A stretch of DNA of 41,498 nt, from NCBI GenBank assembly GCA_020352495.1, contig CP070677.1, positions 1,725,968-1,767,465 on the forward strand, given 5' to 3'. Below the pieces are notes generated by a model. It saw only the letters and a list, made by a program, of their open reading frames with translations. It was not told where the DNA came from and did not search any database. Position numbers and translations under genes: made by a program. Source of the stretch: Candidatus Latescibacterota bacterium. Its GTDB lineage: Bacteria > Krumholzibacteriota > Krumholzibacteriia > WVZY01. Below are positions 15,760 to 40,328 of the stretch, in pieces (position 1 is the stretch's first letter; every line of letters begins with the position of its first letter).

Positions 15760-16446
15760 CTAGTCGTATAGAGCTTTGATCGCGCCCCATGTGGTGGGTT
15801 GAGCGGGAACTGTCTCCAGTGGGATGAGGACCATGTGCGCGGCGGGGTTGAGCTGCGGCATCCATGGCCCGCCGTCAACCGACAGCTCGACGAACACGTC
15901 GAAAAAGCTGTCGATGTGATACAGCCCCCCACCAAGGTCCACGATGTCTGTCTGCCCCAGAGACGCCAAAGCTGGGCTCTCCTGGACCGCGATATCGTAA
16001 CCTCCAACACTGCCCGAGAGGGACATGGATACGATCTCCGCATCGAACAGCCCCGTCGTGTTGCCCCACTTGTTGTACACCCTGGTGGTCACGGGGCCGG
16101 TCAGCGTAACCCACACAGAGCCAAGCCCCATATCCACTTTGGTGTCCAGAATGGAGTCGAATGTTTCGACCTCGTCGTTTCCCATCTGCTGCCGGAAAAC
16201 GTTCGTGAAGCACCTATGCCGAGGGGTGCACATTTTGACGGGGCCAGGAAACTCGGCGGCCAGGCCTTCTGCCATGTAGAGACTGATAAGGTTATCGCAA
16301 TCAGGGGGATCCGACTCTGGCGGAAGCGCGGGGTCCGCGAGTATCACTTGCGCCCCGGCTTCGGAGGGCCACCCGGCGCTGAGCGCCACAACGAATATCC
16401 CCACGAGAAGGGGGACACTCCAGGTCACCTTTCTCAAAAGCGTCAT
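15760..16446 (-). CDS. Secreted protein with C-terminal TTWGAIKALY tail
   Basis: 228 residues; the ATG follows AAAGGAGAGG. The signal peptide (to about AGA-QV, residue 33) has a long hydrophobic core. The mature protein has no recognised domain. It looks beta-rich with a few cysteines (CDN, MCTPRHRC) and phrases such as VWVTLTGPVTTRVYNKWGNTTG. The last residues, TTWGAIKALYD, match the ends of two other exported proteins in this window (18631-19179 and 19384-19956), which otherwise do not resemble it. This points to a common C-terminal tag. A hairpin follows the gene. Confidence 0.8.
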   Translation of the reverse strand: MTLLRKVTWSVPLLVGIFVVALSAGWPSEAGAQVILADPALPPESDPPDCDNLISLYMAEGLAAEFPGPVKMCTPRHRCFTNVFRQQMGNDEVETFDSILDTKVDMGLGSVWVTLTGPVTTRVYNKWGNTTGLFDAEIVSMSLSGSVGGYDIAVQESPALASLGQTDIVDLGGGLYHIDSFFDVFVELSVDGGPWMPQLNPAAHMVLIPLETVPAQPTTWGAIKALYD

Positions 16447-16835
16447 GACCTCTCCTTTCTGTTGGAGATCACAGCGTCTATGTGTGCGTGACTTTTTTGT
16501 TCAGCGGTTGGGTGTCGCTGTTCGAGGTGTGGCTGGTCGCTGCGGCACTTATTTTACCTCTGCTACCTGCAATAGTCAACCCGGAACGTCGCGACTAGCA
16601 CAGGCTTGCGTTGTTCTGTGAACGTCAGATCCAGTGATCGTTCTGTGTGATTTAGTGAATTCTCGGGAACCCGACCGGATAGATTCGCATCCCTGAGCGA
16701 ACCCTTTGTTAAGTCGACGGTTTTTAAGAAAAACAATTAATCGCCTGCCGCTAAGCTGCACGAGCACATTGAAAACTCCACTCCAACAAAACTACCGTTT
16801 GCTCGCGTCAGTTTGAGCCGCCTGTCACGCGTTAC
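16447..16835. other. Intergenic region with no supported gene
   Basis: About 390 bp. The 63-codon minus-strand frame at 16576-16767 lacks a ribosome site and family features. A small A/T hairpin GTTTTT-AAG-AAAAAC near 16720 lies downstream of the SRPBCC gene and could help end its transcript. Nothing else is seen. Confidence 0.4.
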
Positions 16836-17276
16836 TTAGTCATCTTTTTCCAAAAATTCTTTGAGACGTTTTTTGACAAAAAATGTCCAACCCTCGATGC
16901 AGCTCTCCCTCGAGAATTCAGGGATATCCTCAGGAAAACTTTCCTTGACTTGATGTGTCATTTTCAATTTTGTCTGATTGTTCTGCTCGAATAATTCGAA
17001 CACTACGTAGGAATCCCCTGGGTAGCCATCATATCTCCAATCATATTTGATCATTTTCAGAGGCACTACTTCTGTCACTTTCCACACGTGTAGGAAATCT
17101 CTACCTTGACTCCGTACATTAAATTGAGTCTCAAATCCTACTTCGGGTTTGAATGACGGGATATTCTCAAAAAACCATCTACGCATTTGGTCAATCTCCG
17201 TTATGGAATTCCAAACGGTGTCAATTGACCTGTTAAAGGTCTGTTCCACGATAATTGGCCCATCATCGGTTCTCAT
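16836..17276 (-). CDS. SRPBCC / AHSA1-like (START-fold) protein
   Basis: 146 residues; ATG preceded by GGAGGTACC. The fold pattern of the Aha1/SRPBCC family is seen: an N-terminal strand then FNRSIDTVWNSITEIDQMRRWFF, the mid-strand VGFETQFNVRSQGRDFLHVWKVTEVVP, the turn YDWRYDGYPGDSYVVFELFE, and a C-terminal helix FSRESCIEGWTFFVKKRLKEFLEK. Such proteins bind small hydrophobic ligands in a cavity or help Hsp90-like proteins, and the ligand cannot be told here. Base composition is clearly more AT-rich than the neighbours, so the gene may have been acquired. It lies 79 nt after the DUF2284 gene on the same strand. Confidence 0.85.
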   Translation of the reverse strand: MRTDDGPIIVEQTFNRSIDTVWNSITEIDQMRRWFFENIPSFKPEVGFETQFNVRSQGRDFLHVWKVTEVVPLKMIKYDWRYDGYPGDSYVVFELFEQNNQTKLKMTHQVKESFPEDIPEFSRESCIEGWTFFVKKRLKEFLEKDD

Positions 17277-17355
17277 GGTACCTCCATTTCGAGCTATATT
17301 GTTGGTTTGGAGACAAGCGGTTCAATGGTGGCGCGCTGGTGCCGGCCGGTACATC

Positions 17356-17895
17356 CTATTCGACTAGTAACAGACCGAATCGGTCCATCTTCTTTGTATA
17401 ATCGGTGAGTACTTCGATTTGGTAACCACAATTCCTTGCCGTGGCAAAAACATCTACACCCAGAGCTTCAGGTGAAGGCCTGGCATTCTCTGGGCGCTGG
17501 CACTCGTCCTTGTTTGGCGGGCAATCTTCACAGAAATTACAGGGATCAATAAAGAGAACCAGCGCTTTGTGAAAGCCGGACAAGAAAACATCGCGTTCGA
17601 GCTTAAGCAGCCTCCCATTGATCTTTCTAGTGTACGCATGACGGTCGTCGGGATCCTCGACCGCTATGGGAAAGTGAAAAATCGCGATTTGTTGATATTC
17701 CGTGAATAACCTTTGACACTCATCAACACTTGGTGTGTTTGGCGGGCAGGTTGCAGTCTTGCCGAAATCTTTGCAGCCGAACATGCACTTCATGCGGACC
17801 CACTGTCCCAACACGATCGCGTCAGGATCAATCCATTTGAAATCTCGACAACCGCGTTGATCAAAGATCGCTTCTAGTTGTGTTCGTTCAATCAT
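17356..17895 (-). CDS. DUF2284 Cys-rich metal-binding protein
   Basis: 179 residues from the ATG at 17893-17895, which has AAGGGGAT upstream; a frame 43 codons longer lacks a ribosome site. Cysteine groups of the DUF2284 family are present: VRMKCMFGCKDFGKTATCPPNTP in the N-terminal half, then DPCNFCEDCPPNKDECQRPENARPS. The ending ARNCGYQIEVLTDY is also typical. The family is predicted to bind metal or an Fe-S cluster in the cytoplasm, with no established reaction. It appears co-transcribed with the SRPBCC gene. Its base composition is also lower in GC than the surroundings. Confidence 0.85.
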   Translation of the reverse strand: MIERTQLEAIFDQRGCRDFKWIDPDAIVLGQWVRMKCMFGCKDFGKTATCPPNTPSVDECQRLFTEYQQIAIFHFPIAVEDPDDRHAYTRKINGRLLKLERDVFLSGFHKALVLFIDPCNFCEDCPPNKDECQRPENARPSPEALGVDVFATARNCGYQIEVLTDYTKKMDRFGLLLVE

Positions 17896-18041
17896 AAATC
17901 CCCTTGTGAATGATTGACTTCTACTGTACCGCAATCCTTTTTTAGTTTTTACGTTACCATATTTTGGAAGGACTACCAACCAGCACTCGTCGACTTTACC
18001 GACGTGTTGGGTGCCTTGGATCAATCCTGATCTCGCCAGGA

Positions 18042-18521
18042 CTATAGATCATCGGGACAGGTTACGTCGCGGAGTTGGAAAGTGATCTGTTTGTCTGTTC
18101 TAGGAATAAGAGCCCATGCGCCAAGAACGATCAACATCTCGCATTCGCCCTGAAAACCACCCTCTACCTCAACTTCGACTTCCGTAAATGTTTCACGAAC
18201 TCGTACGATGTCGAGGCACCCCTCGCAGCCGCCGCCCTTGAGAGACACGTAGACCAGTTCCTGTCCAGCGACGGGTCGTGGAGGAAGCCATTCCTCCTTG
18301 ATACGCTCAGGGAAACAACTCGTCGTCAGCGATCTGAAGTCAGCTTCGGTCCGTACCACATATGAAAACAGATCCCCTTCCGAATTCAGCAGGCATCCCG
18401 CGCAGCTTCCGCTATTCAATTCGGACCCGATCGTAGTCGGAGTCTTGACACCTTGATTGCACGCTGATACTACAAGTACCGCCAGAACAGCAAATGTCAG
18501 GCTTGCTTCTCTCACTCGCAT
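18042..18521 (-). CDS. Lipoprotein, unknown function
   Basis: 159 residues from the ATG at 18519-18521, eight nt after GGGAGGA; an upstream in-frame start would add ten residues before the signal peptide. MRVREASLTFAVLAVLVVSAC is a lipoprotein signal with lipobox VSAC (Cys21). The mature part carries paired cysteines (CAGC, CEGC and three more) and a run of acidic beta-strand text (FTEVEVEVEGGFQGECEM). No named family is recognised. Disulfides in the periplasm are likely. It follows the Cys-rich exported gene at 18631-19179 by 109 nt on the same strand. Confidence 0.78.
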   Translation of the reverse strand: MRVREASLTFAVLAVLVVSACNQGVKTPTTIGSELNSGSCAGCLLNSEGDLFSYVVRTEADFRSLTTSCFPERIKEEWLPPRPVAGQELVYVSLKGGGCEGCLDIVRVRETFTEVEVEVEGGFQGECEMLIVLGAWALIPRTDKQITFQLRDVTCPDDL

Positions 18522-18630
18522 TTGTTTATCCTCCCGACCACGCGGGATCAAATCCCCGTCTGGTCAAACTTCAACGACTCATCTCATTCGAACCGAGTCG
18601 CGCAGCGTACTTTCAGTGTTGCTTTCCGCA

Positions 18631-19179
18631 CTATTCGGCGTATAATGCTTTTACTTTCCCCCAAGTGGAATATTTCGTGGGCACATCGCAGGTGCAGCTA
18701 AGATTGGAATTGACGATACCCGTTCCGCCGGTCGCGTAAACCGTCTCGTGGTTGCAGTCCACCACTTCGATCCGACCCGAGGGCGCTGCCGGGTCCGGTA
18801 GTACGGGATAGTAGCAACAGGGTTCGGTCAGCCCTTGCGTGAAATAGTTGATCGCGCAAATGTAGATCGGACTGGAAAGGCACGTCCCATAGCTGACCGC
18901 GATTCCCGTCTGTGAATTGCCCCAGTAGAGGGCGTAGACGAATGTATCGGAGAGATACATAGCGTCCAAACACGGTGGCTGTGGGGCATAGAATTGGGCC
19001 GCCACCGCCCCCGGCGTGTTAACGTGGACGATGTGATAGCTCGTTAAACCCGATTGGGTATCTGGAAGATTGCAGTCCGTTCCACCGGGATCGGCGAAAA
19101 TGCCAATACTCCCGGGCTGACCAGCCGCCGGTAAGGCGAATATCACCGTGGCGACGACGACCACAAAGACGGTTTTCAC
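18631..19179 (-). CDS. Cys-rich secreted protein with TWGKVKALY tail, paralogue A
   Basis: 182 residues from a GTG with GGGAGG five nt upstream. The signal peptide ends near AAG-QP (residue 20). The mature part starts GSIGIFADPGGTDC and has about a dozen cysteines, including CC in LTEPCCYYPVLPDP. It shares a full-length pattern with the gene at 19384-19956: IG[IV]F.D.GG..C, GNSQ.G, INYF.QG.TE.CC, PDP.A.SG..EVVDC and the tail STWGKVKALY. Function is unknown; a disulfide-stabilised extracellular beta protein is likely. The promoter at 19225-19233 belongs to it. Confidence 0.82.
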   Translation of the reverse strand: MKTVFVVVVATVIFALPAAGQPGSIGIFADPGGTDCNLPDTQSGLTSYHIVHVNTPGAVAAQFYAPQPPCLDAMYLSDTFVYALYWGNSQTGIAVSYGTCLSSPIYICAINYFTQGLTEPCCYYPVLPDPAAPSGRIEVVDCNHETVYATGGTGIVNSNLSCTCDVPTKYSTWGKVKALYAE

Positions 19180-19224
19180 CCGTACCTCCCAAGTGTGTCG
19201 TAGGCTAAAAAAGGCCCGGTCTCA

Positions 19225-19233
19225 ATTGTACCA
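19225..19233 (-). promoter_or_regulatory. Extended -10 promoter of Cys-rich paralogue A
   Basis: Minus strand TGG-TACAAT, giving a leader of about 39 nt to the GTG at 19179. No good -35 at 17 nt. Confidence 0.5.
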
Positions 19234-19383
19234 TAGCACGAGGTTTTCAATGAGACACTTCCCCACACGCGTTTGGAGGATGAGCGGGCTTTCAGTTTTT
19301 CGGCCTGTCGACTTCTCGGTCCATCGACGCCCAGGGCTCGATAAACGCAAAAGCCGGATCGGCTTGGGGGACGGGCGTCGTTA

Positions 19384-19956
19384 CTACCGCTGGAACAGCG
19401 CCTTGATCTTCCCCCACGTGGATGACTCGATCGCGACGGGATAACAGAACGGTGGCATGAGACACGCACAGTTTGCGCTGGAATTGATCAGATCATCCAT
19501 CCCAAGGACGAAGACGACCTGGTCTTCACAGTCAACGACTTCGACTTGTCCCGACGATGCGCCGGGATCGGGTTCGATACCGTACCAACAACACTCCTCC
19601 GTGTAGCCCTGAACGAAATAATTGATGGTGAGTATCTGGAAGTTGCCCGTAATACACTGGTCGTAGTCAATCGACACACCGTCTTGAGAGTTGCCTACCG
19701 TCCCGGAGAAAACCGCCGTATCCGACAGCCAGGTTACCAGATGCATGCAGCTTGACATCGGCGCGGCAAACCGCGATCCGGTCGCACCCTGAGAGTTCAC
19801 GTGAAGAACGGTGACCGTCATAAGACCCGGGCTCGTGTCGTACAACAGACAGAAACACCCGCCCGTATCCTTAAAGACACCAATGTCTTCCGCATGCCCG
19901 GATCCAATGGCACCAAGGAGGGTCACCGAGATCACCAACAACCACATTCGTATCAT
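19384..19956 (-). CDS. Cys-rich secreted protein with TWGKIKALF tail, paralogue B
   Basis: 190 residues; the ATG is preceded by GGGGG at 6-8 nt. The signal peptide ends near GHA-ED (residue 22). The mature part begins DIGVFKDTGGCFC and matches paralogue A through INYFVQGYTEECCWYGIEPDPGASSGQ and EVVDC, and the C-terminus reads SSTWGKIKALFQR. Cysteines are many and partly in the same places. The two genes lie 204 bp apart in the same direction, each with its own promoter, so this is an old tandem duplication rather than an operon copy. Function is unknown. Confidence 0.82.
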   Translation of the reverse strand: MIRMWLLVISVTLLGAIGSGHAEDIGVFKDTGGCFCLLYDTSPGLMTVTVLHVNSQGATGSRFAAPMSSCMHLVTWLSDTAVFSGTVGNSQDGVSIDYDQCITGNFQILTINYFVQGYTEECCWYGIEPDPGASSGQVEVVDCEDQVVFVLGMDDLINSSANCACLMPPFCYPVAIESSTWGKIKALFQR

Positions 19957-20333: not shown

Positions 20334-22472
20334 ATGATCGGACGGACCATTTCTCACTACAAAATACTCGAGAAGCTCGGCGAAGGCGGAATGGGCATTG
20401 TGTACAAAGCCGAAGACACAAAGCTCAAACGAATCGTTGCACTCAAGTTTCTCCGTAGCGCCGCATTCGGGAGCGAGGAACAGAAGACTCGCTTTGTCAG
20501 AGAAGCGCAGACCGCGGCTGCGTTGGATCACGCCAGTATCTGCACCGTATTTGAAATTGACGAGGTCGATGATCAGATATTCATTTCGATGGCGTATGTC
20601 CACGGCGTGAATTTGAAGGAGCTTCTACAGTCCGGTCCGTTGGACATCGACGAGGCCTTGAGGATCGCGGTCCAGGTTGGGCGCGGGCTCGAGGCGGCCC
20701 ACACGAAGGGCATCATTCACCGCGACATCAAGTGTTCGAATATTATGGTCACACGCCAGGGGGCGGTCAAGATCACCGACTTTGGTCTTGCGAAGATGCC
20801 GGGCGGCACGGAGATCTCAAAAACGACAATTGGAGCCGGAACACCCTCTTACATGTCACCGGAGCAAGCAAGCGGGAGTGCGGTCGATCACCGGACGGAC
20901 ATCTGGTCGCTTGGAGTTTGTCTCTACGAAATGCTCACCGGTGAGCTGCCGTTTAAGGGCGATTTCGACGCCGCGGTCGCGTACTCGATATTGAACGACG
21001 ATCCAAAACCCGTCTTCGAGTTTCGTCCTGAAATACCCCAGGGGGTCGAGGGGATTCTTGCCAAAACGATGGCTAAGAACCCCGATGATCGGTATCAGAA
21101 GATGTCGGAGTTACTGGATCATTTGGAGTCCCCGGAGTCTGCTCCGGCTCTTGTTGCGACGGGCAAATCAGCGCGCACTGACAAAACACGGCCATCGATT
21201 GCCGTGCTCCCATTTGAAGACATGAGTCCGAACCGAGATCAGGAGTACTTCTGCGATGGTGTCGCTGAAGAAATCATGAACGCCCTCAACCAGGTTGAGG
21301 GACTCCAGGTTGCCGCCAGAACATCCGCCTTTGCGTTCAAACACAAAGCGGAGGACATTCGCGAAATCGGTAGAAAGCTGAGCGTGGGAACACTACTCGA
21401 GGGCAGTGTGCGAAAGGCGGGTGACAACCTCAGAATCACGGTGCAGCTGACGGACGTAGCCGAGGGTTTTCGCCTCTGGTCCCAGCGATTCGACCGTGAA
21501 CTGAAAGATGTGTTCGCGATCCAGGAGGAGATAGCGGCAAACGTCGTACAGGCACTGGAAGTCGAACTGAGCGAGAAGGACGGTCGCATCCTGGCAAAGA
21601 CATCCACCGAAGACCACCAAGCGTATGATCTCTATCTCCGCGGTCGGCAGTTCTACCGACAGACGCACCGCAAAGGGATCAACTATGCAATCGAAATGTA
21701 TGAACATGCCATAAAAAGGGATCCATCCTATGCGCTCGCGTACGCCGGATTGGCGGACTGCTATTCCTACCTGTTCAGCTTTTTCGACAGCAACAGAGCC
21801 AATCTCGAACAAGCTATGACCCTGAGCCAAAAATCCCTCGAGCTAGACCCTGAACTCGCCGAGGCTCACGTGTCACGCGGACGAGCGTTTTACTACAACA
21901 CGCGGTACGATGAGGCTGAGAAAGAGTTCGAGACGGCGATTCGATTGAATCCCACCCTTTTCGCCGCCTATGAGTCATACGCCCGCAACTGCTACAGCCA
22001 GGGCGATCTCACAAGGGCCGCGCAACTGTTCGAACAGGCTGTGAGTATAGATCCGGAGAATTTCAACGCCCCCTTGCTTCTTGCGCAGACCCGTAGAGCG
22101 CTTAATCAGAACGAAAAAGTCAAGCAGGCGCTCAAAACGGGATTGGTGAATGTCAAAAAGCATTTGGAGTTGAATCCGGATGATGCACGCGCGTCGTATA
22201 TGAGGGCGATAGGACTGGCCGTCGCTGGAGAGAAGAAGGAGGCCTTGGAGTGGATCGAAAGAGCATTGTCAATCGATCCCGAAGATCCAATGATCCTCTA
22301 TGGGGCCGCCTGTGTCTATGCCCAGACAGGCAAGGAGGAAGAGGCAATTACTCAACTCGAGAAAGCTCTCAGTGCAGGATGCTGCCACAGGGATTGGGTC
22401 GAAAGGGATAGCGACTTTGACTCGCTCCGCGACCATCCTCGGTTTAGGGCTCTCCTGGCAAGACTCGATTGA
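20334..22472 (+). CDS. Ser/Thr protein kinase with TolB-like and TPR domains
   Basis: 712 residues; ATG after AGAGGACAGGA. Kinase domain 1-275: glycine loop GEGGMG at 16-21, Lys38 in VALKFL, catalytic HRDIKCSN (Asp131), DFG at 149-151 and the APE-like SPEQ. Residues about 288-420 are the TolB-like region common in such proteins: PSIAVLPFEDMSPNRDQEYFCDG, then LEGSVRKAGDNLRITVQL and LWSQRFDRELKDVFAIQEEI. TPR units fill 430-700 (DPSYALAYAGLADCYS, NPTLFAAYESYARNCYSQGD, DPEDPMILYGAACVYAQTGKEEEA). No membrane helix is seen, so it is cytosolic. Kinases of this layout are numerous in environmental FCB and related genomes, and targets are unknown. All catalytic residues appear intact. Confidence 0.93.
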   Translation: MIGRTISHYKILEKLGEGGMGIVYKAEDTKLKRIVALKFLRSAAFGSEEQKTRFVREAQTAAALDHASICTVFEIDEVDDQIFISMAYVHGVNLKELLQSGPLDIDEALRIAVQVGRGLEAAHTKGIIHRDIKCSNIMVTRQGAVKITDFGLAKMPGGTEISKTTIGAGTPSYMSPEQASGSAVDHRTDIWSLGVCLYEMLTGELPFKGDFDAAVAYSILNDDPKPVFEFRPEIPQGVEGILAKTMAKNPDDRYQKMSELLDHLESPESAPALVATGKSARTDKTRPSIAVLPFEDMSPNRDQEYFCDGVAEEIMNALNQVEGLQVAARTSAFAFKHKAEDIREIGRKLSVGTLLEGSVRKAGDNLRITVQLTDVAEGFRLWSQRFDRELKDVFAIQEEIAANVVQALEVELSEKDGRILAKTSTEDHQAYDLYLRGRQFYRQTHRKGINYAIEMYEHAIKRDPSYALAYAGLADCYSYLFSFFDSNRANLEQAMTLSQKSLELDPELAEAHVSRGRAFYYNTRYDEAEKEFETAIRLNPTLFAAYESYARNCYSQGDLTRAAQLFEQAVSIDPENFNAPLLLAQTRRALNQNEKVKQALKTGLVNVKKHLELNPDDARASYMRAIGLAVAGEKKEALEWIERALSIDPEDPMILYGAACVYAQTGKEEEAITQLEKALSAGCCHRDWVERDSDFDSLRDHPRFRALLARLD

Positions 22473-33538: not shown

Positions 33539-35890
33539 TCAACGGATCAAAACCATCTTTTGGGTCACCGACTGATCGGCCGCTGCGAACTTCACAAAGT
33601 AGACGCCCGACGCGACCTTTTCACCATATGTGTTTGTGCCATCCCAAGGCGCCGAATGCGGACCGTCCTCGAACGTGCGGTTGACCACCCGTTTGATTTC
33701 CCGTCCAGATACGTCGTAAATACGGATCTCGACCGTGGCTCGACTCCGAAGGCTAAAGACGAACGTCGTGCCATCCGTTACCGGGTTTGGCAGAATCGCA
33801 AAGTTGGGAACGAGCCCCTTCGCGCCGTCTCCCGCGATTCCCGTTCCGACCGATGTGTACGCCGTGCCCTCATACGGCAGGTAATTCAAGGCGGTGCTTG
33901 TCACTTGAAGGGTGTCGCTGCCCGCCACGTCGATTTGAAAGGTGATCTGACCCGACACGTCCGTTGAGCCGTGATCATAGATGGTACCGGAGCTGCCCAT
34001 CACGCACACCAGGGCGTTTTCGATCGGAGCCTGGCCTTCGGTTTCGACCGTCACGGTAAAATCGCTTGGCCCGATGGGGACGTTCTCCGGATGGCTCACG
34101 ACCTGTGTAGCGGGCTCCGCCGTCCACATGGCGAGCGCAGCGTCACCAAATAGAATTAGCTCTAAGATACAGAAATCGTAGTACCAGTACTGGTCACCAA
34201 GCGGGACGTAAACATCTTTGGATATCCCGTGGGCCGCTCCGATCCTGAAGAGATTCTCCCTAAAAACCTTCCGGTAGAACTCGAGGCTCAGCATCTCTGA
34301 AGGTCCCACGTCCGGTGGCGTTCCCAAACCCACGCGCGAGTTCATAATGACCGCTACAGCACCACCGTTGGCGTTGTTCATCAAGTGCTCGGCGAAACAA
34401 TCACCGTCGACATCCCCCGCGTCGAACGCTCCCGAAATACATGCGATCGAGTTGTGAACACCAAGCGCGTCACCGTTCACCAGGGCTTTGGCGTCGGTGC
34501 TGTACATCACAGTATCCGAGTTTGCGAAGTAGACCCCGTTTTGATTACCGTGCGCCGCATAGTGACAGTAACCCACGCCACCATTGATTTCGGCTATGAC
34601 ACCTGCACGACTGATGGTCCCCTGGCTTTGGTACTGCTTGACATCGTTCCATGGCGGCGGCGTGCAATCGGCAATCGAATCGTTGACGATATCACCATGG
34701 TAATTCGCCCAGAGTTCGACGGCGGGTAGCAAACAGTTCTCTATATATCCGGCAGGCGGGTTCTTTTCATAAGTCAACACCTTGTGCACGAAGTTCGTGG
34801 CTTCCGCCGGAGTCTCTATCGGGGCCCGACCGACAAACACGTCCGAATACATGTCGAGTGTGTCGAGCCCCGGCTCCCCATAGATGTGATTGTCATTTGA
34901 GTCCCACGTACCGTCGAGATCTGAAAAGTACAGATCGACGGGCATGTAAAAGCCGCTCAGAGTGTCCGATTGTGAGATATTCCGCTCCGGGACCACCCCG
35001 AGATCTCCGGCAAGTGTGACATACATCGTCCCCCAGTTTGCGTTTGCGTCTATGATGAAATTCCTCACCTGTTCCGCTGCATCCCAACCGGGATATTGCA
35101 GCACGACCTCGGAGACGGTCATTATCTTTGAGGGAAAACCGTGTTGGGTCCGCCACTCTCGGAGCGGTTCGACAAAAGGTACGAGCGTCTCACCGGTGAT
35201 GATGACGTGCACAAAGTCACCGGCATCTAGCGACGGCGCCGCGTGGGCCGGAGCGCGGGGGGGTGGGGCGCATTTGGCGATCTCATGAGGATTTTTCACA
35301 AATTGCCTCAAGGCCTTTGACATCTCTTTTAGCTGAAACGGCGTGCGTGTGTTGGGCGAACCTCTCGTTACGACGTAATCGACGACGAGCGTGGCACGCC
35401 GAAGATACTCGAGCTTACCCTTGGCCGGATGGTACCTGAACGGTGTGACGCGGAATCCCGCAACGCGGAACCCTCCGGCATTTCCCGATCTCAGGTGGGC
35501 GACGGGCGTGTCGGGAACGGGTCCCGTCGATGCGTAGGCATCCCGGTGTGGGGGGACAAAAACGGCCTCCTGCCCTGACAAGGGGCGAGGTGGTTGGGCG
35601 GGATAGAGCACAAAAACACCCTCGATCTCGCACCACTCCGCATCTCTCAACGTTGTGCGGGTTACACGCGAGCCCTGAGGAACAACAAAAGAGAGACAAT
35701 ATGAAGGAATTCGCGGTGAGCCGGGAGGTCCCTCAGGGAACGAATTCCGGAGCACGATCAGATCGAATCCATCTTTCTCGAGGATTTGGAATGCCCCTTC
35801 GGGCATGGTAAATTCGTAGGTGAGTTGACTGGCCCCCACCAGAGTGGAAGACAGCAGTAGCGTGACGGCAAGTAGGCAGGCACGTTTCAT
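33539..35890 (-). CDS. Gingipain-like C25 cysteine peptidase with FlgD-like C-terminal domain
   Basis: 783 residues; ATG after GAAGGGGG. A signal peptide (MKRACLLAVTLLLSSTLVGAS) is followed by a propeptide-like region to about 210, with FRVTPFRYHPAKGKLEYLRRATLVVDY, typical of the C25 propeptide. The caspase-like domain starts near FVHVIITGETLVPFVEPLREWRTQHGF. It has catalytic His447 in HYAAHGNQNG and Cys484 in IACISGAFD, and AHGISKDVYVPLGDQY after it. An immunoglobulin-like linker, VEIRIYDVSGREIKRV, and the final FlgD-like tail ending TQKMVLIR complete it. The active-site pair is intact, so it is likely an active secreted protease that is cleaved at its N-terminal propeptide. It stands alone on the minus strand. 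Confidence 0.92.
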   Translation of the reverse strand: MKRACLLAVTLLLSSTLVGASQLTYEFTMPEGAFQILEKDGFDLIVLRNSFPEGPPGSPRIPSYCLSFVVPQGSRVTRTTLRDAEWCEIEGVFVLYPAQPPRPLSGQEAVFVPPHRDAYASTGPVPDTPVAHLRSGNAGGFRVAGFRVTPFRYHPAKGKLEYLRRATLVVDYVVTRGSPNTRTPFQLKEMSKALRQFVKNPHEIAKCAPPPRAPAHAAPSLDAGDFVHVIITGETLVPFVEPLREWRTQHGFPSKIMTVSEVVLQYPGWDAAEQVRNFIIDANANWGTMYVTLAGDLGVVPERNISQSDTLSGFYMPVDLYFSDLDGTWDSNDNHIYGEPGLDTLDMYSDVFVGRAPIETPAEATNFVHKVLTYEKNPPAGYIENCLLPAVELWANYHGDIVNDSIADCTPPPWNDVKQYQSQGTISRAGVIAEINGGVGYCHYAAHGNQNGVYFANSDTVMYSTDAKALVNGDALGVHNSIACISGAFDAGDVDGDCFAEHLMNNANGGAVAVIMNSRVGLGTPPDVGPSEMLSLEFYRKVFRENLFRIGAAHGISKDVYVPLGDQYWYYDFCILELILFGDAALAMWTAEPATQVVSHPENVPIGPSDFTVTVETEGQAPIENALVCVMGSSGTIYDHGSTDVSGQITFQIDVAGSDTLQVTSTALNYLPYEGTAYTSVGTGIAGDGAKGLVPNFAILPNPVTDGTTFVFSLRSRATVEIRIYDVSGREIKRVVNRTFEDGPHSAPWDGTNTYGEKVASGVYFVKFAAADQSVTQKMVLIR

Positions 35891-37512: not shown

Positions 37513-37773
37513 CCAATTCTCCTTGCGATTGCGCCGACGGCGCCTGAATTTCAAAAAAGTCTTAGGGATATTCAAAAGGATATTTCAAGACGCCGTCTTC
37601 GTCGAGTCCAACATCGCTCCCACCGGTTGTCCGCATACCGGATCCGCCGCCAATAGTCCCTGGACGCGTGGTTGGACACGAAACGCGTTGGGGCGACAGT
37701 GTGCACCGGTGAGGTGACGCCTGCACCTGTAGGGGGCGCCGGAACCGTCACCATAGCGGTGAAACGCAAGTTG

Positions 37774-37782
37774 TGCTAAAAT
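37774..37782 (+). promoter_or_regulatory. Extended -10 promoter of the M28 peptidase gene
   Basis: TGC-TAAAAT about 55 nt before the ATG at 37836. The remaining 37513-37773 gap shows no gene or second clear promoter for the divergent lipoprotein. Confidence 0.45.
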
Positions 37783-37835
37783 CGAGAGTTGAATATATTA
37801 CACAGGAGACCACCGATGGTCACAAGGAGTTGGTA

Positions 37836-40328
37836 ATGCGTTTGCTCGTAATCGGTTTGGCTGTTCTGGCACTTCTTCCCGCCACGATTCTTTCCGCACC
37901 AGACAAGACCGCTCTGGTCACGATCGAGAGCCGGGATCCGTTTATTGCGGAACGGCTTTTGGCCACCGATGTGATGATCGTCCGCGACATGGGTCGCTAT
38001 CTTCTCGCCCTGGCCGACGAGCGGGGAATGGCGACGCTGGACGCCTTGGGTCTCCGGTGGGAAATCCTCGATGACGACACCGAGGGCAAGACCTACTACA
38101 CGGTTGACTTCAGGGACGAGAAACGTCTCCGTGCCGCCGCCTCACGTATTCGAATCCTCAAACAAGACGGATTGGCCGGCGTGATCGAAGCCTCACCCAG
38201 GGAGGCCCTGACGATAGCAGGGGATGGCTGCGAGATAGCCCGAGTCTTCCTTCGGCCGATACGACTCTCTCCCGTTGTCAAACCCATGCCAAGACGGGCG
38301 CCGGCGCAGCCCGACCCCCTTATCGAGGAGATGGTGGACTCGGTCTCGACCGACCGGATCAACTCCCACGTGCAACGTCTGCAGGATTTTGTTACACGCT
38401 ACTCCTCGCACGATAGTTGTCTCGCCGCGTCCCAATGGATTGGTGACCGCTTCGAATCCTACGGGATCGACAGTGTCTACTTTCACGACTTTAGCGCTCT
38501 GTATTACGACAACGTCGTGGCCGTGCTCCCAGGAATCGTCCATCCGGATAAGATCGTCATTATCGGCGGGCATTACGATTCCATCACATCCAACCCGGAC
38601 GACTGCCCGGGGGCCGACGACAACGCATCGGGGACGGCGTGCGTCCTGGAATGTGCGCGGATTCTGAGCGATTACGAGTTCGACTATACGCTCACGTTCA
38701 TTGCGTTTTGCGGTGAAGAGCTGGGGCTTCTGGGAAGCGAGGCCTATACCAGCGAGGCCGCGGCCAGAGGAGACGACATCATCGGCATGGTCAACGTGGA
38801 CATGATCGGATATGTCGAAGCCACCGACGAACTGGATCTCGATATCATCGATAATCCAAGCTCGCTTTGGATGAGACAACGTATCATGGACGTTGGCGCG
38901 CTCTATGTGCCGGAACTCTCCGTGGTGAAAGGCACGCTCATAGGAGGGAACAGCGATCACCGGTCGTTCTGGGACAACGGCTACGACGCGATCATGTTTT
39001 TCGAAGACAGCGAGCAATGGAGCCCGTTCATCCACACGGCAAACGATGTCGTTGGATTGAGCTATAACTCACCGCTTCTTGCCGAGCGTTCGGTGAAACT
39101 CGCCGTCGCGTTTCTGGCTGATCTCGCCAGGCCATTCGTTCTGGGTATCGACCACACGCCTCTCGATCACACGGAGGACGAGAGCAATCCCTATCGAGTG
39201 GTGGCGAAGATCCTGGCGGCGGGAACGCCCAACCCTGACTCGCTTCTTGTTCGTTATTCGACGACCGGAGGTGGATGGAACACCCTTACGTTGAACCCTA
39301 CCGGTGCCCCAGATGAGTACGAGGCGTTTATCCCCGCGCAGCCCGGTGGGACGGTTGTCGACTACTACCTGATCGCCGAAGACATGACCGCAAACCGCGT
39401 GACGGATCCGGAAGACGCTCCTTCGGAGGTCCACGCGTTTGCCGTTGGAACACCAACGATTGTTTTTGAAGACGACTTCGAGGCCGATCGTGGATGGACG
39501 GTTGGTGATATCGATGACGACGCGACGGCGGGGATATGGGAGCGCGACGAACCGTATGGGACCTATGTGGGTGACGAACAAGTCCAGCCCGAGGAGGACC
39601 ATACCGAAGCACCGGGTGTGATGTGCTTTATCACGGGTAATGCGCCGAACCCGTCACAGAGTAACGATGACGTCGACAACGGGAAAACCACTCTCTTTAG
39701 CCCGATATTCGATCTCAGCTCCTACGCCAACGCGTGGCTGAGCTACTACCGGTGGTACACGAATGATACAGGAACTCTCGGGTGGGATGTTTGGGTTGTT
39801 GATGTGTCATCTGACAGCGGAGCCACATGGGTGCGTCTCGAGACGGACTCGATATCCGACCGAAGCTGGAAGCCGGTGGAACACAATCTGCTCCATTTTG
39901 TCCCGATGACATCCGGGATCCAGCTCCGCTTTGTCGCAAGCGACGAAGACCCCGGTTCGGTTGTGGAGGCGGGAGTCGATGATTTTCTCATACTCACCTA
40001 TCAGGGATCGGGATCAGCAGTTCTCCCCGGTCGACCGGCGAAACCTACGACGGCACAACTCGAGCAGAATTTCCCCAATCCGTTCAACCCGGAAACCGTT
40101 ATTCGATTCACCATCCCCGAACCCGGGGGAAAAGCTACACTGAGAGTCTACGATGTGACCGGACGTGCCGTGGCCACCTTGATCCGTGGGGAGAGAGTCT
40201 CCGGAACCCGCGCCGTTCGGTGGAACGGGACCAACGATGCCGGTTACGACGTTCCGACCGGCGTGTACTTCTACAGACTCGAGATTGGGGAACAAAGAAT
40301 CTCGCGAAAGCTCGTTCTTCTGCGGTAA
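37836..40328 (+). CDS. Secreted M28-family zinc peptidase with FlgD-like C-terminal domain
   Basis: 830 residues from the ATG at 37836 after AAGGAGTTGG. A signal peptide (MRLLVIGLAVLALLPATILSA) is followed by a propeptide-like part to about 165 and the M28 aminopeptidase fold from about 170 to 430. Metal and catalytic residues are in place: His246 (GGHYDS), Asp261/262 (GADDNASG), Glu294-295 (CGEELG), the Asp of VNVDMIGY, and the later His in FIHTANDV. An immunoglobulin-like part and a MAM/lectin-like beta region (IVFEDDFEADRGWTVGD to DDFLILTY) follow. The C-terminal FlgD-like domain begins LEQNFPNPFNPETVIRFTIP and ends RKLVLLR. It is likely a secreted, surface-delivered aminopeptidase that feeds on peptides. 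Nothing marks its specificity. Confidence 0.92.
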   Translation: MRLLVIGLAVLALLPATILSAPDKTALVTIESRDPFIAERLLATDVMIVRDMGRYLLALADERGMATLDALGLRWEILDDDTEGKTYYTVDFRDEKRLRAAASRIRILKQDGLAGVIEASPREALTIAGDGCEIARVFLRPIRLSPVVKPMPRRAPAQPDPLIEEMVDSVSTDRINSHVQRLQDFVTRYSSHDSCLAASQWIGDRFESYGIDSVYFHDFSALYYDNVVAVLPGIVHPDKIVIIGGHYDSITSNPDDCPGADDNASGTACVLECARILSDYEFDYTLTFIAFCGEELGLLGSEAYTSEAAARGDDIIGMVNVDMIGYVEATDELDLDIIDNPSSLWMRQRIMDVGALYVPELSVVKGTLIGGNSDHRSFWDNGYDAIMFFEDSEQWSPFIHTANDVVGLSYNSPLLAERSVKLAVAFLADLARPFVLGIDHTPLDHTEDESNPYRVVAKILAAGTPNPDSLLVRYSTTGGGWNTLTLNPTGAPDEYEAFIPAQPGGTVVDYYLIAEDMTANRVTDPEDAPSEVHAFAVGTPTIVFEDDFEADRGWTVGDIDDDATAGIWERDEPYGTYVGDEQVQPEEDHTEAPGVMCFITGNAPNPSQSNDDVDNGKTTLFSPIFDLSSYANAWLSYYRWYTNDTGTLGWDVWVVDVSSDSGATWVRLETDSISDRSWKPVEHNLLHFVPMTSGIQLRFVASDEDPGSVVEAGVDDFLILTYQGSGSAVLPGRPAKPTTAQLEQNFPNPFNPETVIRFTIPEPGGKATLRVYDVTGRAVATLIRGERVSGTRAVRWNGTNDAGYDVPTGVYFYRLEIGEQRISRKLVLLR

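What the first reader, a model, noticed from the sequence alone, without database searches (positions are those of the whole stretch)
15760..19956. Shared C-terminal tail [ST]TWG-x-[IV]-KAL-[YF] on three exported proteins
The proteins at 15760-16446, 18631-19179 and 19384-19956 all have signal peptides and end TTWGAIKALYD, STWGKVKALYAE and SSTWGKIKALFQR. The first is otherwise unrelated to the other two. A short, strictly terminal conserved motif on unlike secreted proteins is what a sorting or processing tag looks like. I know of no named signal of this form.
Basis: partly seen in the sequence, partly recalled or inferred. Interest (0 to 1): 0.7.

Follow-up and report, generated by a model that had tools for sequence, protein, structure and literature searches.

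The report
New C-terminal tag on secreted proteins
About 55-60 otherwise unlike exported proteins of this bacterium, and one to fifty per genome across several related phyla, end in the same ten-residue helix, which takes the place of the known type IX secretion tail and looks like an undescribed protein sorting tag.

Summary
An unanchored DNA pattern for WGx[hydrophobic]K[AS]x finds 46 sites in the 4.3-Mb genome, none with the pattern reversed; 45 lie in frame within 18 residues of a stop. Consensus: [VI]-P-[TAV]-E-x-[ST]-T-W-G-x-[IV]-K-[AS]-[LM]-[YF]-x-x-COOH. The tail sits on about 16-20 unrelated exported families and in 78 of 80 genomes of the phylum (probably Krumholzibacteriota). It is multi-copy in Eisenbacteria and Latescibacterota, and single-copy on one small Fn3-like secreted protein in Ignavibacteria, Rhodothermus, Calditrichota and Marinimicrobia relatives. 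Pfam, NCBIfam and the open literature searched do not describe it. The genome also holds the type IX system: SprA, PorU and about 140 type A sorting domains. Among 485 genes examined, 57 end in the tail, 25 in the type A domain, none in both, and homologues carry either. Exosortase is absent. A predicted structure shows a detached helix. Best reading: a short helical C-terminal sorting signal standing where a type IX sorting domain would stand, probably read by that system. The receptor, and type IX dependence, are inferred, not shown.

The parts
15763..15810 (-). C-terminal tail VPAQPTTWGAIKALYD of the 228-aa exported protein (singleton family)
15760..16446 (-). Exported 228-aa protein carrying the tail; no Pfam or NCBIfam family
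18634..18684 (-). C-terminal tail VPTKYSTWGKVKALYAE; predicted free helix (residues 172-181) outside the globular domain
18631..19179 (-). Exported 182-aa cohesin-fold-like protein of a paralogous family with about 25-30 members in this genome
19387..19437 (-). C-terminal tail VAIESSTWGKIKALFQR
19384..19956 (-). Exported 190-aa paralogue of 18631-19179 (41% identity)
33539..35890 (-). Comparison, not a carrier: C25 peptidase ending in a T9SS type A sorting domain (Por_Secre_tail), evidence of the coexisting type IX signal in the same window
37773..40328 (+). Comparison, not a carrier: M28 peptidase ending in a FlgD_ig / type A-like C-terminal domain

Best explanation
The tail ([VI]P[TAV]ExSTWGx[IV]K[AS][LM][YF]xx-COOH) is a short, modular C-terminal sorting signal. 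The carrier leaves the cytoplasm by an ordinary Sec signal peptide (inferred from the N-termini). In the periplasm the tail, a free amphipathic helix on a flexible linker, is bound by a receptor that sends the protein to the same outer-surface destination as proteins with the type IX (T9SS) type A domain, since the tail and that domain replace one another on homologous proteins. The likeliest receptor is part of the T9SS, by analogy with the PorV and PorP/SprF beta-barrels that read type A and type B signals. Shown here: the motif, its strictly terminal place, its spread, its exclusivity with type A domains in the genes examined, its absence from the family libraries. Inferred: the helix (prediction), the sorting function. 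Unknown: the receptor, whether the tail is cleaved, the final location. I hold 'targeting or sorting tag' at about 0.75 and 'read by the T9SS' at about 0.45.
For: Terminal in 45 of 46 genome hits and 30 of 30 phylum-sampled hits although the search pattern had no stop codon. Carried by about 16-20 unrelated exported families. Window genome has SprA, PorU and 140 TIGR04183 domains. Among 485 genes called around tail loci 57 end in the tail, 25 in a type A-like end, 0 in both; within one homologous family 25 tail, 3 type A-like, 3 other; within the beta-helix family 8 and 2, with three tail-less homologues confirmed by TIGR04183. In 248 Bacteroidota genomes SprA is found in 191, and all 73 genomes with a WG[ST][IL]K[AS][LMI]F site are among those. 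18 of 22 named tail-bearing genomes show SprA, 0 of 5 chance-hit genomes do. AlphaFold2: tail outside the confident globular fold, helical. In the single-copy family the tail is the best conserved part of the protein.
Against: No receptor, cleavage or localisation data. The SprA association is confounded by ancestry: all tail-bearing lineages belong to the FCB group, where T9SS is common. SprA was not found in some tail-bearing genomes (12 of 78, 4 of 22), though fragmentation and weak model scores can explain it. Known T9SS signals are beta-structured and 43 residues or longer, unlike this helix (PMC11969387, PMC10202324). Most SprA-positive Bacteroidota lack the tail. The swap data come from regions chosen around tail genes or their paralogues.
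Confidence: 0.5

Rival explanations
1. Docking or retention tag: the helix is not a secretion signal but binds a fixed scaffold (an outer-membrane, peptidoglycan-linked or surface matrix protein), holding the protein in place after export by another route.
For: Invariant W, G and K and a small-residue face (G+1, A/S+5) suggest a specific protein partner. In many lineages a single protein carries a nearly invariant tail, as for a fixed complex. One carrier is a predicted lipoprotein, already membrane-anchored.
Against: No scaffold found in neighbourhoods. Replacement by the T9SS type A domain on homologues points to a shared delivery role.
Confidence: 0.25
2. Receptor-free membrane anchor: the amphipathic helix inserts into a membrane leaflet facing the periplasm or the cell surface.
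For: Amphipathic by hydrophobic moment (0.52 at helix angle against 0.26 at strand angle); short and terminal.
Against: Membrane-binding helices tolerate wide substitution; here W-G and K are fixed and a glycine follows the tryptophan across phyla. The residues after Y/F differ in charge between lineages.
Confidence: 0.12
3. CTERM-type signal cleaved by exosortase, rhombosortase or a similar membrane protease (the core resembles the IPTLxxWG of IPTL-CTERM).
For: Resemblance V-P-T-x-x-x-W-G to IPTL-CTERM (recalled from memory, a lead only).
Against: No transmembrane helix or basic end follows; the chain stops 8-11 residues from W. Exosortase absent from the window genome and from tail-rich, at least 96% complete relatives such as G038, G039 and G053.
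Confidence: 0.03
4. Structural end-cap of a fold, shared by common descent of the carriers, or a periplasmic degradation tag.
For: Several carriers are true paralogues; some periplasmic proteases read C-termini (general knowledge).
Against: Carriers fall in about 16-20 unrelated families. The tail is outside the predicted fold. A permanent degron on dozens of exported proteins makes little sense, and the last residues vary.
Confidence: 0.05

Closest known systems
T9SS type A C-terminal domain (TIGR04183 / PF18962), including the short 43-55 aa form of Prevotella intermedia (PMC11969387)
   Same: C-terminal module on Sec-exported, otherwise unlike proteins, many per genome; found on homologues of tail carriers in this very genome; same host lineages with SprA and PorU
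   Different: Type A is an Ig-like beta-sandwich of about 70-80 residues (3-stranded and 43-55 aa in the short form) with motifs B, D and E; the tail is about 17 residues, predicted helical, shares no motif and does not match the models
T9SS type B (TIGR04131) and type C (ChiA) signals (PMC10202324, PMC12618676)
   Same: Alternative T9SS signals beside type A, type B read by cognate PorP/SprF barrels
   Different: About 100 residues or more with several motifs; no family match for the tail proteins
PEP-CTERM / MYXO-CTERM / GlyGly-CTERM / LPXTG sorting signals (PMC1569441, PMC11980579, PMC3237569)
   Same: Short, strictly terminal homology on unlike exported proteins, dozens per genome
   Different: Tripartite: signature, transmembrane helix, basic end, processed by a membrane or surface enzyme; the tail has no transmembrane helix and exosortase is absent here

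Membership tests
T9SS type A sorting domain (TIGR04183) | Match to the family model over its cut-off at the C-terminus | tested here: not met
   Tail proteins give no TIGR04183 hit, while tail-less homologues do
T9SS cargo (any type) | T9SS translocon and sortase in the genome | tested here: met
   SprA_N PF14349 at G000:C1:1464951; PorU NF033707, 556 bits, at G000:C1:2491366
T9SS cargo (any type) | Sec signal peptide | tested here: met
   Heuristic only: 39 of 46 in this genome, 26 of 30 across the phylum; the heuristic is loose (37% of other genes pass)
T9SS cargo (any type) | Secretion or surface location depends on SprA | not testable with these tools
   Needs a deletion mutant
CTERM sorting signals (PEP-CTERM, IPTL-CTERM and the like) | Transmembrane helix and basic cluster after the signature | tested here: not met
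   Chain ends 8-11 residues after W
PEP-CTERM / exosortase | Cognate exosortase in the genome | tested here: not met
   PF09721: no match in G000 or in at least 96% complete tail-rich relatives such as G038, G039, G053
T9SS type B / type C signals | About 100-residue domain with its own conserved motifs | tested here: not met
   No NCBIfam or Pfam match in tail carriers; tail is about 17 residues

The most novel reading that the evidence does not exclude
The tail defines a separate, undescribed export or surface-targeting pathway of the FCB superphylum, older than its phyla, with its own receptor: ancestrally serving one small Fn3-like secreted protein (still single-copy in Ignavibacteria, Rhodothermus and Calditrichota relatives) and expanded to dozens of cargo proteins in Krumholzibacteriota, Eisenbacteria and Latescibacterota.
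Probability: 0.3. Interest if true: 0.88.

Novelty: new variant of a known kind. Interest (0 to 1): 0.72.

Why it matters
C-terminal sorting signals have been entry points to whole secretion and surface-anchoring systems (LPXTG, PEP-CTERM, T9SS). This one is conserved across several phyla, carried by dozens of proteins per genome in some, and absent from the family libraries and open papers searched. It would let the surface proteome of several uncultured phyla be predicted from sequence. It also asks whether the type IX translocon reads a short helical signal besides its beta-domain signals; how the T9SS recognises different signals is named as an open question in PMC10202324.

Tried and rejected
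Chance: the reversed-pattern control gives essentially no hits. Exosortase: absent. Recurrent neighbour encoding a protease or transporter: a Pfam tally of 65 genes flanking tail genes shows none; the commonest family is FlgD_ig, in 5. Conserved neighbourhood of the single-copy family: maf and B12-binding mutase genes in Ignavibacteria relatives, other housekeeping genes elsewhere, no partner visible. Genes around sprA (lptF/lptG-like permeases, an M28/glutaminyl-cyclase-like gene, nusA-infB; named by eye from the translations) gave no receptor candidate. Literature for the motif strings: no paper. Non-FCB hits of the public scan (Chloroflexota, Clostridium, Salinisphaera, Desulfobacterales) are mid-protein or spurious ORFs.

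Full report
Observation. Proteins 18631-19179 and 19384-19956 are paralogues at 41% identity; 15760-16446 shares nothing with them but the tail. The window is 1725968-1767465 of a 4.31-Mb single-contig genome, 91.5% complete.

Genome-wide census. The pattern TGGGGNNNNRTNAARGCNYTNT gives 26 hits against 0 for the reversed control, the relaxed one 46 against 0. No stop codon is in the pattern, yet 45 of 46 hits are in frame within 18 residues of a stop, 43 at 9-11. With a looser motif 56 proteins were collected; the columns read [VI]-P-[TAV]-E-[EPD]-[ST]-T-W-G-[KRA]-[IVL]-K-[AS]-[LMI]-[YF]-x-[ED]. W, G and K are invariant by the definition of the search, but T(-1) in 51 of 56, E(-4) in 43 and P(-6) in 41 were not imposed. 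Degenerate W-S and W-N forms occur as well. All synonymous codons are used at the conserved positions, so selection acts on the protein.

Carriers. After cutting off the tail, the carriers fall into about 16-20 families (some split by masked or broken ORFs): a cohesin-like beta-sandwich family (fold match), parallel beta-helix proteins, a four-member family resembling CARDB (by eye), a diheme-like protein, a predicted lipoprotein pair of which one member has a degenerate tail, and singletons. They are short (median 204 aa) and Cys-rich (3.9%) compared with type A cargo (677 aa, 1.05%). The Cys richness is weaker across the phylum (about 2%), so in part it belongs to one expanded family.

Spread. 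In the phylum 78 of 80 genomes and 42 of 43 genera have the site, 0 to 45 per genome, with a handful of reversed-control hits in all. One hit per genome was read in 30 genomes: 30 of 30 terminal, W at 8-11 from the stop, 26 with a signal-peptide-like start. Contigs of these genomes coincide in length and content with public records titled Candidatus Krumholzibacteriota and UBP1 (JAUWCL010000045, DHHB01000020), and the same-genus relative with CP070631, titled Latescibacterota; I infer the GTDB phylum Krumholzibacteriota. A scan of 84,980 species genomes, capped at 100 stretches, returned almost only the FCB group. Counts per genome are about 5-55 in Eisenbacteria, Latescibacterota and unnamed bins, 2-3 in Aegiribacteria, and 1 in Ignavibacteria, Rhodothermus, Calditrichota and Neomarinimicrobiota. 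Some titles (Fibrobacter, Chitinivibrionia) are on bins that fall in the window's phylum and are probably misnamed.

The single-copy family. In Bacteroidota sensu GTDB every true hit that was read is one small protein: signal peptide, an Fn3-like domain (Foldseek hits include Fn3 modules), linker, and R-T-W-G-S-I-K-A-[ML]-F-R at the very end. Across 14 sequences 9 columns are invariant and 5 of them are in the tail. Neither Pfam nor NCBIfam describes it. This suggests the tail is old and that its use on many proteins is an expansion (inference).

Link to type IX secretion. The window genome has SprA, PorU and 140 TIGR04183 domains; two proteins with such ends lie in the window. Among 485 genes called around tail loci, 57 end in the tail, 25 in a type A-like end, none in both. 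In the cohesin-like family 25 members carry the tail, 3 the type A-like domain, 3 end otherwise; in the beta-helix family 8 and 2. Three of these tail-less homologues were checked and hit TIGR04183 above cut-off. The tail therefore stands where the type IX signal would stand. In 248 Bacteroidota genomes SprA is found in 191; all 73 genomes with a WG[ST][IL]K[AS][LMI]F site are among them (at least 2 of the 73 read as spurious; hypergeometric p about 1e-10 if genomes were independent, which they are not). Of 22 named tail-bearing genomes 18 show SprA, and none of the 5 chance-hit genomes does. The reverse does not hold: most SprA-positive Bacteroidota lack the tail.

Structure. AlphaFold2 gives the window protein 18631-19179 a confident beta-sandwich (pLDDT above 90) and a helix at 172-181 in a tail of pLDDT below 50; the single-copy protein behaves likewise, with pLDDT about 62-65 at its helix. 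The tail is thus not part of the fold, as expected of a recognition peptide. Low confidence of a tail is weak evidence on its own.

What is excluded. CTERM-type processing needs a transmembrane helix after the motif and a cognate membrane protease (PMC11980579); here the chain ends instead, and exosortase is absent from this genome and from tail-rich, nearly complete relatives. A structural-element explanation fails on the number of unrelated carriers. Type A, B and C signals are domains or regions of 43 to about 100 residues or more (PMC11969387, PMC10202324) and the tail matches none of the models scanned.

Verdict. A real, undescribed C-terminal tag. That it is a targeting or sorting signal I hold at about 0.75; that the type IX system reads it at about 0.45. 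The receptor is not identified.

Noticed in passing
L147:199-597, L168:6437-6850, L165:1320-1733 and others: A widespread single-copy ~135-aa secreted Fn3-like protein of Ignavibacteria, Rhodothermus, Calditrichota and Marinimicrobia relatives, ending RTWGSIKA[ML]FR, without any Pfam or NCBIfam family; often next to maf.
   Followed up: partly
window 18631-19956 and about 30 paralogues in the genome: An expanded, Cys-rich family of exported proteins whose model resembles cohesin modules by Foldseek (best E 2.9e-5), with no Pfam match; function unknown.
   Followed up: partly
L296, L298, L299, L300 and L295 around sprA: sprA lies beside lptF/lptG-like permease genes and nusA-infB in several lineages, often with an M28/glutaminyl-cyclase-like gene directly downstream (named by eye).
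   Followed up: no
window 20334-22472: Ser/Thr kinase with TPR repeats; 13 related sequences turned up among the 485 genes sampled near tail genes.
   Followed up: no
G000:C1:1477553-1478347 (L096): An ORF begins like nicotinate-nucleotide adenylyltransferase (NadD) and ends as a tail-bearing cohesin-like protein; a fusion or an assembly error.
   Followed up: no
public records DYDD01000049, JACQXT010000101, CP070631: MAGs titled Fibrobacter sp., Chitinivibrionia and Latescibacterota appear to belong to the window's phylum (matching contig coordinates), so their names are probably wrong.
   Followed up: partly
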